Source: Nakamurella leprariae
Lineage (GTDB): Bacteria > Actinomycetota > Actinomycetes > Mycobacteriales > Nakamurellaceae
Direction: 5' to 3'
DNA: 64,000 nucleotides
Assembly (NCBI RefSeq): GCF_016918035.1
Contig: NZ_JAERWK010000029.1
Location: 1 to 64,000, forward strand
Part shown: positions 16,291 to 32,416 of the stretch, in pieces
Position numbering within the stretch: the first letter of the stretch is position 1
How the letters are laid out: each line of letters starts with the position of its first letter
Made by a program: the position numbers and the translations under genes
The notes under the pieces: model-generated
What the model was told of the DNA's origin: nothing
Seen by the model: the letters and a program-made list of their open reading frames with translations, nothing else
The model's database searches: none

Positions 16291-17202
16291 ATGACCCGCT
16301 CCCGTTCGACCGCACTGTTCGCCGCGGTCACCACCGCCGCCCTGCTCGCGCTCACCGCCTGCGGGTCGAGCAACGACGCCGGCAGCTCGTCCTCGTCCTC
16401 GTCCTCGTCCTCGTCCTCGTCCTCGTCGGCCGGATCGTCGTCGGCCGGGTCCTCCGCCGCCGGTGCGGCACCCGCCGGACTGATCAACGACGGCGAGATG
16501 AGTCTGTGCATCGACCCGGAGTACCCGCCCATGGAGTACTACGAGAACGGGACCAGCGGTGACCCGATCGGCTTCGACGCCGACGCCGCCCGCGCGCTGG
16601 CCGAGCTGTGGGGTGTCGAGCTGACCTTCGAGGTCACCACCTTCGACGGCCTCATGCCGGCGCTGCAGGCCAAACGCTGCGACGTGCTGTGGTCCGCGCT
16701 GTACATGAGCGAGGCCCGGCTCGAGGTGGCCGATGCGACGGCGTTCTTCAACACCGGGCCGGGCCTCATCGTGCCGACCGGTTCGAGCATCGCCACCTCC
16801 GACGACCTGTCGGGGAAGACCGTGGCCGTGCAGGGGGGCGGCGCCAACGAGCAGACCCTGGTGACCCTCTCGGAGCAGTTCGAGGGCGAGAGCAAGCCGG
16901 GCATCACCATCCAGCCGTACCCGAAGACCGCCGAGACCGTCGCCGCGGTGACCAACGGCAAGGCGGACGCGCTCATCGAGACCGATGTGGCCGCCGCCGA
17001 CATGGTGTCCAAGTCCGCCGGCAAGCTCGAGGTCGTGCCCGGCGTCTTCCCGGCCGACACCCAGTTCGGTGTCTTCACCGTCAAGGGCTCCGAACTGTCC
17101 CCGGCCGTGGCCGAGGGCGTCAGCACCCTGATCGAGAACGGCACCCTGGCCGAGCTGGCCACCAAGTACGGCCTGGACCCGGAGTCGCTGCCCGCCGCCT
17201 GA
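16291..17202 (+). CDS. Amino-acid ABC transporter substrate-binding lipoprotein
   Basis: This is the extracellular binding subunit of a polar/basic amino-acid importer (family 3). Of 303 aa, the signal peptide ends in the lipobox LTACGS; about 30-58 are a poly-serine linker encoded by a hexamer repeat. The binding domain starts at LCIDPEYPPMEYYENG and includes GFDADAARALAELWGVE and QAKRCDVLWSALYMSEAR. Specificity cannot be read off, but the downstream genes favour arginine or another guanidino compound. GGAGG lies upstream of the ATG. It begins the operon that runs to the ureohydrolase. Confidence 0.9.
   Translation: MTRSRSTALFAAVTTAALLALTACGSSNDAGSSSSSSSSSSSSSSSAGSSSAGSSAAGAAPAGLINDGEMSLCIDPEYPPMEYYENGTSGDPIGFDADAARALAELWGVELTFEVTTFDGLMPALQAKRCDVLWSALYMSEARLEVADATAFFNTGPGLIVPTGSSIATSDDLSGKTVAVQGGGANEQTLVTLSEQFEGESKPGITIQPYPKTAETVAAVTNGKADALIETDVAAADMVSKSAGKLEVVPGVFPADTQFGVFTVKGSELSPAVAEGVSTLIENGTLAELATKYGLDPESLPAA
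16387..16428 (+). repeat. Hexanucleotide microsatellite coding poly-Ser
   Basis: TCGTCC is repeated six times without a break (16387-16422) and ends in TCGTCG. Each unit adds two Ser codons, so slippage would change the linker length of the binding protein without shifting the frame. Confidence 0.85.
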
Positions 17203-17338
17203 TCCGTCATCGGGTCCGCGCCGGGACGACCACTGCCCGGTCCGGCGCCGACCCCGACGGTGACCGGATCACCACCCCGCAGCACCATCCGGCCGCCCGG
17301 CTCGCCCGCCGGCGACCGCGACACCGTGAGGAAGTTCC

Positions 17339-18121
17339 ATGGAATTCGACGGCACCATCTTCTGGGACGCCCTGACGTCGCAGGAGTACCTGGACGGCGC
17401 CGTGCTGTCCATCGGCCTCGCCGCCGCCTCGCAGGTGCTGGCGGTGATCATCGGGTTCGTGGTCGCGCTCGGCCGCATCTCCAAGCACCGCGCCCCGCGG
17501 GCGGTCGCCGGCCTGTACGTCTGGTTCTTCCGGGCCATCCCCACCCTGCTGGTGCTGCTGCTCGTGTGGAACGCCGGGCCGCAGCTGTTCCCCGCCCTGC
17601 GGGAGGACTGGTTCTCGCCGTTCCTGGCCGGGCTGATCGGCCTGTCCATCGTCGAGGCCGCCTACATGGCCGAGATCATCCGGGCGGCCCTGCTGAGCAT
17701 CGACGACGGCCAGGCGGTCGCCGCCCGCGCGCTCGGTCTGACGCCGCTGCAGGTGCTGCGCAAGGTGCTGGTGCCGCAGGCGATCAAGGTGGCGCTGCCG
17801 CCGACCGGCAACGAGTTCATCGCGATGATCAAGTACACCTCGCTGGCCTCGGTGATCTCGCTGCGCGAGCTGCTCACCACCGCGCAGGTCGGTGTGTCGG
17901 TGACCTTCCGCTACGCGGAGTACTACGTCGCCGCCCTCGTCTACTACCTGGTCATCGTCAGCCTGGTGATGCTGCTGCAGTCGTGGATCGAGCGCCGGTA
18001 CCGGTGGACCTCCACCGTCCCGACCCGCCGGTTCCTGCCGCCCTCGTGGTCGCGCCGCTCCCCCGGAGCGCCCGGCTCCACCGGAACGCCCAACGCCGCA
18101 CAGGAAGCCCTCAAGGTATGA
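17339..18121 (+). CDS. Amino-acid ABC transporter permease
   Basis: This is the membrane subunit of the importer, 260 aa with about five hydrophobic helices. The HisM/GlnP-type EAA loop is clear: EIIRAALLSIDDGQAVAARA, followed by LGLTPLQVL. The C-terminal 35 residues are a Pro/Ser/Arg-rich cytoplasmic tail. The ATG at 17339 has GAGGAAG upstream. The stop overlaps the ATPase start (ATGA), and only one permease gene is present, implying a homodimeric channel. Confidence 0.93.
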   Translation: MEFDGTIFWDALTSQEYLDGAVLSIGLAAASQVLAVIIGFVVALGRISKHRAPRAVAGLYVWFFRAIPTLLVLLLVWNAGPQLFPALREDWFSPFLAGLIGLSIVEAAYMAEIIRAALLSIDDGQAVAARALGLTPLQVLRKVLVPQAIKVALPPTGNEFIAMIKYTSLASVISLRELLTTAQVGVSVTFRYAEYYVAALVYYLVIVSLVMLLQSWIERRYRWTSTVPTRRFLPPSWSRRSPGAPGSTGTPNAAQEALKV

Positions 18122-30897: not shown

Positions 30898-30904
30898 GCC
30901 GGGC

Positions 30905-32416
30905 TCAGCCCGTGAAGCCGTGCTTGTGCATGACGTGCTTGATCCGGGTGTAGTCCTCGAACCCGTACATCGACAGGTCCTTGCCGTAGCCGGAGTGCTT
31001 GAAGCCGCCGTGCGGCATCTCCGCCACCAACGGGATGTGGGTGTTGATCCAGACGCAGCCGGCGTCGATCCGCGCGGCCATCCGGCCGGCCACATCCACG
31101 TTGCCCGTCCAGACCGACGACGCCAGCCCGTAGTCGGTGCCGTTGGCCAGCCGGACCGCGTCCTCCTCGTCGGCCGCCCGCTGCACGGTGATCACCGGGC
31201 CGAAGACCTCGCGCTGCACGATCTCGTCGTCCTGGGAGACCCCGGCCACGACGGTCGGGGCGAAGAAGTACCCCGGCCGGTCCAGCGGCGCCCCGCCCGT
31301 GGTGATCTCGGCCCGCTGCCCCGCCCGGGCGACCAGGTCGGTGATCCGGGTCAGCTGCGCCTCGTTGTTGATGGCGCCGTAGAGGACGTCGGCGTCGTCC
31401 GGGTCGCCGGTCCGGGTGGCTGCGGCCCGCGCGGTCAGCGCGGCGACGAACTCGTCGTGGATGCCCGGCAGGGCGATGACCCGGCAGGCCGCGGTGCAGT
31501 CCTGGCCGGCGTTGAAGAACCCGCCGGCGGCGATGCCCTCGACGGCCGCCTCCAGATCGGCGTCGTCGAAGACCACGACCGGTGCCTTGCCGCCCAGCTC
31601 CAGGTGCGGTCGGGTCAGGTTGCCGGCCGCGGCGGTGGCCACCGCGATGCCGGCGCCGACCGACCCGGTGATGGACACCAGCGCCGGCGTGCGGTGCGCG
31701 ACCAGGGCGGCACCGGTGTCCCGGTCACCGCACACCACGTTGACCACGCCCGGCGGGAAGAACTCCTGGGCCGCCCTGGCCATCCACACGGTGCTGGCCG
31801 GAGTCGTGTCGGACGGTTTCAGCACCACGCTGCACCCGGCGGCCAGCGCGGGCGCCAGCTTCCAGATCGCCATCATCATCGGGTAGTTCCATGGTGCGAC
31901 CTGGCCGACGACGCCGACCGGCTCCCGGCGGATGGAGCTGGTGTGCCCACGCAGGTACTCCCCCGACGCCCGGCCCTCGAGCACCCGGGCCGCCCCGGCG
32001 AAGAACCGGAGCTGGTCGACCATCGGCCCGATCTCCTCGGACAGGGTCAGCGCGGTCGGCTTGCCGGTGTCCCGCACCTCGACCGCGGTCAGCTCCTCGC
32101 CGTGCCGCTCGATGTGGTCGGCGAACCGGAGCAGGGCCAACTGCCGCTCGCCCGGCGTCGACCAGCGCCAGGACCCGAACGCCTCCGCGGCCGCCGCGTA
32201 GGCCCGGTCGACGTCCTCGCTCCCGGACAGTGGCGCCGTCCCGTACACGGCACCGGTGGCCGGGTCGACGATGTCGCTGGTGGCGCCCGAGGCGCTGTTC
32301 ACCTCCACCCCACCGATGACGTTGCGCAACGCCACCGGCCCGGACTGCGGGCGGGACTCGGCAGTCCTGGCGACGGCGGTGCTGGAGGCGGAGCGGTCGG
32401 TCGGGCTGGCGGTCAC
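30905..32416 (-). CDS. Aminobutyraldehyde-type NAD-dependent aldehyde dehydrogenase
   Basis: This 503-aa enzyme oxidises an aldehyde to the acid. Catalytic Cys307 is in FFNAGQDCTAACRV, as in PatD-type gamma-aminobutyraldehyde dehydrogenases; Glu273 is in HLELGGKAP and the oxyanion Asn in VAPWNYP. In this cluster the best substrate is 4-guanidinobutyraldehyde from the AruI-like enzyme, giving 4-guanidinobutyrate; aminobutyraldehyde or betaine aldehyde are alternatives. The GTG start has GAGGAG upstream. It ends the metabolic island; glyS follows downstream on the same strand after 92 bp... that is, glyS lies to its right and reads toward it. Confidence 0.88.
   Translation of the reverse strand: MTASPTDRSASSTAVARTAESRPQSGPVALRNVIGGVEVNSASGATSDIVDPATGAVYGTAPLSGSEDVDRAYAAAAEAFGSWRWSTPGERQLALLRFADHIERHGEELTAVEVRDTGKPTALTLSEEIGPMVDQLRFFAGAARVLEGRASGEYLRGHTSSIRREPVGVVGQVAPWNYPMMMAIWKLAPALAAGCSVVLKPSDTTPASTVWMARAAQEFFPPGVVNVVCGDRDTGAALVAHRTPALVSITGSVGAGIAVATAAAGNLTRPHLELGGKAPVVVFDDADLEAAVEGIAAGGFFNAGQDCTAACRVIALPGIHDEFVAALTARAAATRTGDPDDADVLYGAINNEAQLTRITDLVARAGQRAEITTGGAPLDRPGYFFAPTVVAGVSQDDEIVQREVFGPVITVQRAADEEDAVRLANGTDYGLASSVWTGNVDVAGRMAARIDAGCVWINTHIPLVAEMPHGGFKHSGYGKDLSMYGFEDYTRIKHVMHKHGFTG

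What the first reader, a model, noticed from the sequence alone, without database searches (positions are those of the whole stretch)
16291..32416. Island for guanidino-acid (arginine) catabolism outside the usual arginase/ADI routes
The sequence shows an amino-acid importer, a 2-hydroxyacid dehydrogenase, an AruI-like ThDP decarboxylase and a ureohydrolase in one operon, with a GABA-type transaminase and an aminobutyraldehyde-type dehydrogenase nearby. From the Pseudomonas arginine transaminase pathway (AruH, AruI, KauB-type dehydrogenase, GbuA, GabT), all steps after 2-ketoarginine are represented. The dedicated arginine transaminase is missing, so entry must differ. Linking them into one pathway is inference.
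Basis: partly seen in the sequence, partly recalled or inferred. Interest (0 to 1): 0.75.

Follow-up and report, generated by a model that had tools for sequence, protein, structure and literature searches.

The report
Oxygenase-linked guanidino-acid catabolic gene cluster
A bacterium carries a rare but conserved set of genes that probably imports an arginine-like guanidino acid and breaks it down with the help of an oxygen-using enzyme instead of the usual first enzyme, a route for which I found no description.

Summary
Importer, D-2-hydroxyacid dehydrogenase (2HADH), ThDP decarboxylase and ureohydrolase form one operon; the decarboxylase is of the 2-ketoarginine-decarboxylase (AruI) family by HMM and tree; the ureohydrolase looks like a guanidino-acid hydrolase, not an agmatinase; no AruH-type transaminase is in the window.

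Importer, 2HADH, TIM, Rieske, reductase, tandem Lrp and a half EPSP-synthase protein recur in 8 of 8 actinobacterial loci found; in one congener they form one operon. A gammaproteobacterium has TIM, 2HADH and Rieske around ThDP, beside AruH. In Kineosporia a DDAH-like protein plus carbamoylase stands in for the ureohydrolase, which points to a guanidino group. The nearby GABA transaminase and aldehyde dehydrogenase are not in the other seven blocks.

Best reading: an oxygenase-dependent guanidino-acid pathway, most simply alpha-oxidation (hydroxylate, oxidise to 2-keto acid, decarboxylate, release urea). One shared pathway is fairly secure; the oxygenase reaction, TIM step and substrate are inferred. 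Six paper searches (listings only) showed no description. New variant of a known kind.

The parts
14259..15008 (-). half-length (C-terminal half) EPSP-synthase-like protein, behind Lrp1
   Evidence: PF00275 59 bits; PDB best M. tuberculosis-type EPSP synthase C half 55 bits; present in 8 of 8 loci
15005..16147 (-). tandem Lrp/AsnC regulator (Lrp1), divergent from the importer operon
   Evidence: two HTH and two ligand-binding stretches; 8 of 8 loci
16291..17202 (+). family-3 substrate-binding protein of the importer
   Evidence: PF00497
17339..18121 (+). importer permease
   Evidence: PF00528
18118..18933 (+). importer ATPase
   Evidence: PF00005; start read
18993..19979 (+). D-2-hydroxyacid dehydrogenase (2HADH)
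   Evidence: PF02826/PF00389; R237, E266, H285 invariant in 6 aligned orthologues
19976..21604 (+). ThDP-dependent 2-keto acid decarboxylase, AruI family
   Evidence: NF005712 531 bits over cut-off 500; tree
21606..22661 (+). ureohydrolase, predicted guanidino-acid hydrolase
   Evidence: PF00491; Arg at GbuA R72; own actinobacterial clade
22738..23772 (-). zinc alcohol dehydrogenase (L-idonate/L-threonine dehydrogenase-like); probably an insertion, not part of the core
   Evidence: NF007375 213 bits, under cut-off; no such gene between ureohydrolase and Lrp2 in L105, L106
23877..24812 (-). second tandem Lrp regulator (Lrp2)
   Evidence: in 7 of 8 loci
24985..25956 (+). xylose-isomerase-like TIM-barrel protein
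25953..27176 (+). Rieske oxygenase, nearest to CntA and stachydrine demethylase
   Evidence: PF00848, PF00355; start read
27176..28240 (+). reductase of the Rieske oxygenase (flavin/NAD plus 2Fe-2S domains)
   Evidence: PF00111, PF00175; PaaE-like 110 bits, under cut-off; start read
28312..29691 (-). GABA transaminase, neighbour, not conserved in the block
   Evidence: TIGR00700 650 bits; absent from 7 other blocks
30905..32416 (-). aminobutyraldehyde-type dehydrogenase, neighbour, not conserved in the block
   Evidence: NF010000 684 bits; absent from 7 other blocks

Best explanation
The locus is one rare catabolic unit for a guanidino carboxylic acid that uses an oxygenase. An ABC importer brings in the compound. 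A Rieske oxygenase related to the betaine oxygenases (ligands with a cationic head, short chain and carboxylate) with its reductase hydroxylates it, most simply at the alpha carbon. The D-2-hydroxyacid dehydrogenase oxidises the hydroxy acid to the 2-keto acid; the TIM-barrel protein is taken to set position or configuration of the hydroxyl. The AruI-like ThDP enzyme decarboxylates the 2-keto acid to an aldehyde, an aldehyde dehydrogenase makes the shortened guanidino acid, and the ureohydrolase splits off urea. The logic is that of mandelate degradation placed on a guanidino acid. Shown: gene content, conservation, families, key residues. Inferred: every reaction, the order and the substrate (4-guanidinobutyrate or a close homologue is the leading guess).
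For: The block is in 8 of 8 actinobacterial loci found with the Rieske orthologue. In G032 it is a single operon, importer-2HADH-TIM-Rieske-reductase-aldolase-ureohydrolase. The set TIM-ThDP-2HADH-transporter-Rieske lies in a gammaproteobacterium (L052) with a ThDP of another clade, beside an AruH 54% identical to that of Pseudomonas; relatives of its Gate transporter occur in 13 other ThDP loci, in L016 between ureohydrolase and ThDP. Guanidino removal is available in all 8 carriers: ureohydrolase in the block in 4, one of the same clade (63-67% identity) elsewhere in 3, and in Kineosporia, which has only a partial 75-bit ureohydrolase hit, a DDAH-like protein plus M20 carbamoylase-type protein in the block. 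Hydroxyacid oxidation recurs by an unrelated enzyme: L109 has importer-ureohydrolase-ThDP-FAD-linked oxidase of D-2-hydroxyacid type. The sister ThDP clade has AruH directly upstream in 4 of 5 loci; window-type loci have none at E<=1e-5. Rieske and 2HADH residues intact in 6 of 6 aligned. Rieske nearest to CntA and stachydrine demethylase; gamma-butyrobetaine is a CntA ligand in PDB and resembles 4-guanidinobutyrate in charge and chain (inference).
Against: No substrate or reaction is shown. In G032 a class II aldolase stands where ThDP would be, which plain alpha-oxidation does not explain. The TIM step has no firm assignment. No aldehyde dehydrogenase is in the conserved block. Family-3 binding proteins and Lrp regulators usually mean an alpha-amino acid; my binding-protein test was inconclusive. 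D-2HADHs often run as reductases. The Rieske bridging residue is Asp, not Glu as in CntA (recalled), so the reaction cannot be copied from CntA. The ureohydrolase found in G583 groups on the agmatinase side, so the guanidino link is weaker there. Three TIM homologues in other gammaproteobacteria are not with ThDP.
Confidence: 0.42

Rival explanations
1. Oxidative deamination: the importer takes up arginine or a close alpha-amino acid, the Rieske enzyme hydroxylates the alpha carbon so that ammonia leaves and 2-ketoarginine forms, replacing AruH; ThDP and ureohydrolase then follow the Pseudomonas route, and 2HADH recovers D-argininate.
For: Amino-acid-type importer and Lrp regulators; AruH present in the sister ThDP clade and absent from window-type loci; betaine-type Rieske oxygenases can cleave C-N bonds (recalled for CntA).
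Against: In L052 an AruH orthologue is kept beside the same Rieske/TIM/2HADH set, so these would be redundant; leaves the TIM protein and the constancy of 2HADH unexplained.
Confidence: 0.22
2. Use of N-methylated arginines: the Rieske enzyme removes methyl groups from methylarginines or their 2-keto acids, and the product enters the ThDP/ureohydrolase route.
For: Rieske nearest to a stachydrine demethylase and CntA; Kineosporia has a DDAH-like protein in the block.
Against: Does not need 2HADH or TIM; Kineosporia has both Rieske and the DDAH-like protein, which would do overlapping work; no literature hit for Rieske with methylarginine catabolism (2 papers, unrelated by title).
Confidence: 0.12
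3. One reading: a Pseudomonas-type arginine transaminase pathway with the transaminase encoded elsewhere, and a Rieske cluster that is a chance neighbour under its own Lrp regulator.
For: ThDP and ureohydrolase families fit; in the window the two halves are separate operons with separate regulators; GABA transaminase and an aldehyde dehydrogenase are near.
Against: In G032 the two halves are one operon; the set recurs in 8 loci and in another phylum; no convincing AruH in the own genome; GABA transaminase and dehydrogenase are not conserved there.
Confidence: 0.12
4. The pathway serves a different compound in which the ThDP enzyme is not a 2-ketoarginine-type decarboxylase (for example a sugar-acid-like or hydroxylated guanidino compound, given the isomerase-like TIM barrel, aldolase and half EPSP synthase).
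For: TIM fold of ketose epimerases and IolE; class II aldolase in G032; ThDP absent in G032.
Against: ThDP scores over the family cut-off; guanidino-removing enzymes available in all 8 carriers.
Confidence: 0.12

Closest known systems
Pseudomonas arginine transaminase pathway (AruH, AruI, GbuA)
   Same: AruI-family ThDP decarboxylase and a guanidino-acid-type ureohydrolase
   Different: no AruH; Rieske oxygenase, reductase, TIM barrel and D-2HADH are the constant partners; ureohydrolase outside the GbuA and GpuA clades
Carnitine/betaine Rieske oxygenases (CntA, stachydrine demethylase, GbcA)
   Same: nearest by sequence and fold; accompanied by a flavin/ferredoxin reductase
   Different: 22-26% identity in the fold alignments; Asp bridging residue; lies in a guanidino cluster
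Mandelate-type degradation (hydroxyacid dehydrogenase plus ThDP decarboxylase)
   Same: works alike in logic: 2-hydroxy acid to 2-keto acid to aldehyde
   Different: other substrates and dehydrogenase family; comparison recalled, not a membership claim
Agmatine deiminase plus N-carbamoylputrescine amidase route
   Same: Kineosporia's DDAH-like protein plus M20 amidohydrolase would remove a guanidine group in the same two steps
   Different: other enzyme families; acting, if so, on a guanidino acid (inference)

Membership tests
2-ketoarginine decarboxylase (AruI) family, NF005712 | score over the curated cut-off | tested here: met
   531 bits against 500
2-ketoarginine decarboxylase (AruI) family, NF005712 | groups with AruH-linked ThDP enzymes, not with acetolactate synthases | tested here: met
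   98-row tree, quick method, SH-aLRT only: sister clade has AruH; 7 own-genome paralogues outside but on very long branches
2-ketoarginine decarboxylase (AruI) family, NF005712 | decarboxylates 2-ketoarginine | not testable with these tools
   needs an enzyme assay
Arginine transaminase pathway | AruH-type transaminase | tested here: not met
   none in the window at E<=1e-5; own-genome best 32%, 166 bits, against 317 bits between L005 and L066 AruH
Guanidinobutyrase GbuA | Arg at the carboxylate-contacting position R72 | tested here: met
   Arg in the window protein, Ala in E. coli agmatinase, His in PAH; role of R72 from passages of PMC9772407
Guanidinobutyrase GbuA | Met at position 161 (GpuA has Tyr157) | tested here: not met
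   Tyr in the window protein and its actinobacterial orthologues; Met in the rows of the GbuA clade; importance of the position recalled (Lee et al. 2011, seen only as a reference)
Guanidinobutyrase GbuA | member of the GbuA clade | tested here: not met
   separate actinobacterial clade outside GbuA and GpuA
Rieske non-haem iron oxygenase | CxH and CxxH cluster motifs, His/His/Asp iron ligands (motifs recalled) | tested here: met
   C108, H110, C128, H131, D235, H238, H243, D364 invariant in 6 of 6 aligned orthologues
Quaternary-ammonium oxygenase of CntA type | Glu in place of Asp as the residue bridging cluster and iron (recalled) | tested here: not met
   Asp in 6 of 6 aligned
D-2-hydroxyacid dehydrogenase | Arg-Glu-His catalytic triad (recalled) | tested here: met
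   R237, E266, H285 invariant in 6 of 6 aligned
Xylose-isomerase-like TIM barrel (IolE, ketose 3-epimerases) | fold and metal-type residues | tested here: met
Xylose-isomerase-like TIM barrel (IolE, ketose 3-epimerases) | a particular reaction | not testable with these tools
   many functions share the fold

The most novel reading that the evidence does not exclude
Bacteria have an oxygenase-initiated alpha-oxidation route for guanidino acids: a Rieske oxygenase makes a 2-hydroxy guanidino acid, which a D-2-hydroxyacid dehydrogenase and an AruI-type decarboxylase shorten by one carbon (for example 4-guanidinobutyrate to 3-guanidinopropionate) before urea is removed. It would be distinct from the arginase, deiminase, transaminase, monooxygenase and succinyl routes.
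Probability: 0.33. Interest if true: 0.75.

Novelty: new variant of a known kind. Interest (0 to 1): 0.6.

Why it matters
It turns a loose 'arginine island' into a defined, recurring unit with a testable oxygenase. If the Rieske enzyme acts on a guanidino acid, a family known for carnitine and betaines gains a new substrate class, and arginine-derived catabolism gains an oxygen-dependent branch. It also shows that ThDP genes annotated as 2-ketoarginine decarboxylase have at least four kinds of neighbouring keto-acid supplier (transaminase, amino-acid dehydrogenase, D-2-hydroxyacid dehydrogenase, FAD-linked oxidase), so the family name alone does not mean the Pseudomonas pathway.

Tried and rejected
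Binding-protein test for an alpha-amino group: the Asp that holds the ammonium in amino-acid binding proteins (recalled) lies one residue later in 8 of 8 aligned proteins, those of L011 and L109 included; inconclusive, not used.

3-Guanidinopropionate as the ureohydrolase substrate, from the Tyr at the GpuA position: the trees put the enzyme outside both the GbuA and GpuA clades, so chain length is left open.

Rieske relatives in viral contigs: none confirmed. TIM barrel by sequence in PDB: none at E<=0.1; the fold gave only the superfamily. TIM homologues in three other gammaproteobacteria (4 of 369 sampled genomes counting G583) do not sit with ThDP; in one, a 30% Rieske hit lies about 9 kb away; the TIM gene of G944 is near a contig end. 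The Rieske model is moderate (pLDDT 71.6, several stretches under 50), so its pocket was not analysed. No Rfam match over threshold except two tRNAs.

Paper searches: (54 papers, 15 listed; 10, all listed; 69, 25 listed; 2; 3; 6), seen as listings; no listed title describes a Rieske oxygenase in guanidino-acid catabolism. (6 papers) was on ureohydrolase specificity. Passages only were read of PMC10833137 and PMC9772407.
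Full report
WHAT IS THERE. The window lies in a 4.47-Mb genome of 39 contigs and is about 73% G+C over most of its length. The flagged stretch holds a plus-strand operon of binding protein, permease, ATPase, D-2-hydroxyacid dehydrogenase (2HADH), ThDP enzyme and ureohydrolase (16291-22661), divergent from a tandem Lrp/AsnC regulator with a half-length EPSP-synthase-like gene behind it. 2HADH and ThDP overlap by ATGA; ThDP and ureohydrolase are one base apart. After a zinc alcohol dehydrogenase gene on the other strand come a second tandem Lrp gene and, divergent from it, a second operon of TIM-barrel protein, Rieske oxygenase and reductase (24985-28240), whose genes overlap by a few bases. 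GABA transaminase, a LysR gene and an aminobutyraldehyde-type dehydrogenase follow.

The ThDP enzyme scores 531 bits with NF005712 (5-guanidino-2-oxopentanoate decarboxylase; cut-off 500), against 267 for the best acetolactate-synthase model in the list. In a 98-row tree it sits in a clade of five (window, L106, L105, L003, L004) inside this family, with seven own-genome paralogues outside; support is SH-aLRT only and the paralogues have very long branches. Its sister clade of five has an AruH-type aminotransferase directly upstream of ThDP in four (L005, L006, L007, L009; 3 bases apart) and, in the fifth (L008), one at 32% identity 5.4 kb away. No AruH-like gene is in the window or in the 13 other fetched pieces of window-type loci at E<=1e-5. 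The best match in the own genome is 32% identical, 166 bits, while AruHs of two phyla (L005, L066) score 317 bits with each other. The ureohydrolase is about equally near to GbuA, PAH and GpuA (286, 283, 270 bits) and further from agmatinase (212). It has Arg at the place of GbuA R72, which PMC9772407 describes as able to reach the carboxylate of the substrate (passages); the agmatinase has Ala there. It forms an actinobacterial clade outside GbuA and GpuA, so which guanidino acid it prefers is open.

THE CONSERVED UNIT. Window-type Rieske orthologues were found in 4 of 17 genomes of the family (G000, G066 83%, G051 78%, G032 69%; E<=1e-60), in 1 of 396 genomes of a phylum sample (the own genome; E<=1e-80, at most 4 candidates scored per genome, so misses are possible), in 3 of 300 of the Actinoplanes family and in 1 of 248 of the Kineosporia order (both E<=1e-120). 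The eight actinobacterial loci are G000, G051 (L105), G066 (L106), G032 (L117), G580 Kineosporia rhizophila (L003, L127, L128), G581 Actinoplanes couchii (L004, L129), G1027 (L149) and G1091 (L150). By BLAST, importer, 2HADH, TIM, Rieske, reductase, Lrp1 and the half EPSP gene are in 8 of 8; ThDP in 7 of 8; Lrp2 in 7 of 8; ureohydrolase within the block in 4 of 8. In G032 the importer, 2HADH, TIM, Rieske, reductase and ureohydrolase run in one direction as one operon, and a class II aldolase (NF005451, 366 bits, cut-off 207) stands where ThDP would be. GABA transaminase and aldehyde dehydrogenase are in none of the other seven blocks; the one 35% transaminase hit, at the edge of L105, is another class III enzyme beyond a leuA-like gene.

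A SECOND PHYLUM. Among the 80 ThDP loci of the genome-contig scan (capped at 80 of 574), one, Aestuariicella hydrocarbonica (L052), has TIM (35%), ThDP, 2HADH (32%), a Gate-domain transporter and Rieske (35%) in a row. Its Rieske hit is far above any other in that genome (3.5e-69 against 1.9e-32). Its ThDP is in a different clade. The aminotransferase next to it is 54% identical to Pseudomonas AruH, and relatives of its Gate transporter occur in 13 other ThDP loci; in L016 one lies between a GbuA-clade ureohydrolase and ThDP. So TIM, 2HADH and Rieske travel with arginine/guanidino genes in two phyla. No ureohydrolase is in that cluster; the genome has one elsewhere, on the agmatinase side of the tree.

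WHY GUANIDINO. Of the seven other actinobacterial carriers, three have the ureohydrolase in the block, three have one of the same clade (63-67% identity) elsewhere, and Kineosporia has only a partial 75-bit hit. Kineosporia alone of the eight has, between ThDP and 2HADH, a DDAH-like protein (best PDB match dimethylarginine dimethylaminohydrolase, 63 bits) and an M20 amidohydrolase of the N-carbamoyl type. This looks like urea release replaced by deimination plus carbamoyl removal, and points to a guanidino group at the end of the pathway. In L109 an importer-ureohydrolase-ThDP operon continues with an FAD-linked oxidase of the D-lactate/D-2-hydroxyacid type: an unrelated hydroxyacid-oxidising enzyme where 2HADH would act. 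In five other actinobacterial loci (L102-L104, L107, L112) a Glu/Leu/Phe-type dehydrogenase lies near ThDP (L107 by Pfam; the rest by similarity to it).

MECHANISM. The favoured chain is import, hydroxylation (Rieske), adjustment of the hydroxyl (TIM), oxidation to the 2-keto acid (2HADH), decarboxylation (ThDP), oxidation of the aldehyde (unlinked, or the neighbouring dehydrogenase), urea release. Genes and linkage are shown; reactions are inferred from family knowledge. Weak points are the aldolase in G032, the unassigned TIM step, and an importer and regulators of types that usually go with alpha-amino acids. The main rival lets the Rieske enzyme make 2-ketoarginine by oxidative loss of the amino group; it fits the absence of AruH here but not L052, where AruH is kept. 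I give about 0.8 to one oxygenase-containing guanidino pathway as a whole and about a third to alpha-oxidation in particular.

NOVELTY. Six paper searches (listings only, two of them capped) show no title on a Rieske oxygenase in guanidino-acid catabolism; most subscription journals are not in that library. I file it as a new variant of a known kind.

Noticed in passing
window 14259-15008 (minus); L105:15950-16870, L106:3761-5410, L117:3361-4137, L127:13781-15115, L129:11981-12670, L149:9911-10621, L150:9824-10480: A half-length EPSP-synthase-like protein (C half) sits with one of the Lrp genes of the block in 8 of 8 loci; what half an EPSP synthase does there is unexplained.
   Followed up: partly
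window 15005-16147 and 23877-24812: Both regulators are duplicated Lrp/AsnC units within one protein (two HTH stretches each).
   Followed up: no
L127 (Kineosporia) and L129 (Actinoplanes): Their Rieske proteins are 90% identical although the hosts are of different families, which suggests recent transfer of the block.
   Followed up: no
L109:5420-11992: Importer, window-clade ureohydrolase, ThDP and FAD-linked D-2-hydroxyacid-type oxidase in one operon: perhaps for a 2-hydroxy guanidino acid such as argininic acid.
   Followed up: partly
L102-L104, L107, L112: NF005712-type ThDP genes near a Glu/Leu/Phe/Val-type dehydrogenase: possibly an amino-acid dehydrogenase in place of AruH.
   Followed up: partly
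L117:11876-12652; L011:7095-7991; L040:2534-3253; also in L005 and L007: A class II aldolase recurs in guanidino/ThDP clusters of actinobacteria and pseudomonads; role unknown.
   Followed up: partly
window 16291-17202 (alignment A7): Binding proteins of these clusters carry the conserved Asp one residue later than ordinary amino-acid binding proteins (8 of 8 rows).
   Followed up: partly
window 22738-23772 (minus): The zinc alcohol dehydrogenase between the two halves is absent at this place in G051 and G066.
   Followed up: no
L052:15933-17372: An ethanolamine ammonia-lyase large subunit gene (EutB) follows the gammaproteobacterial cluster.
   Followed up: no
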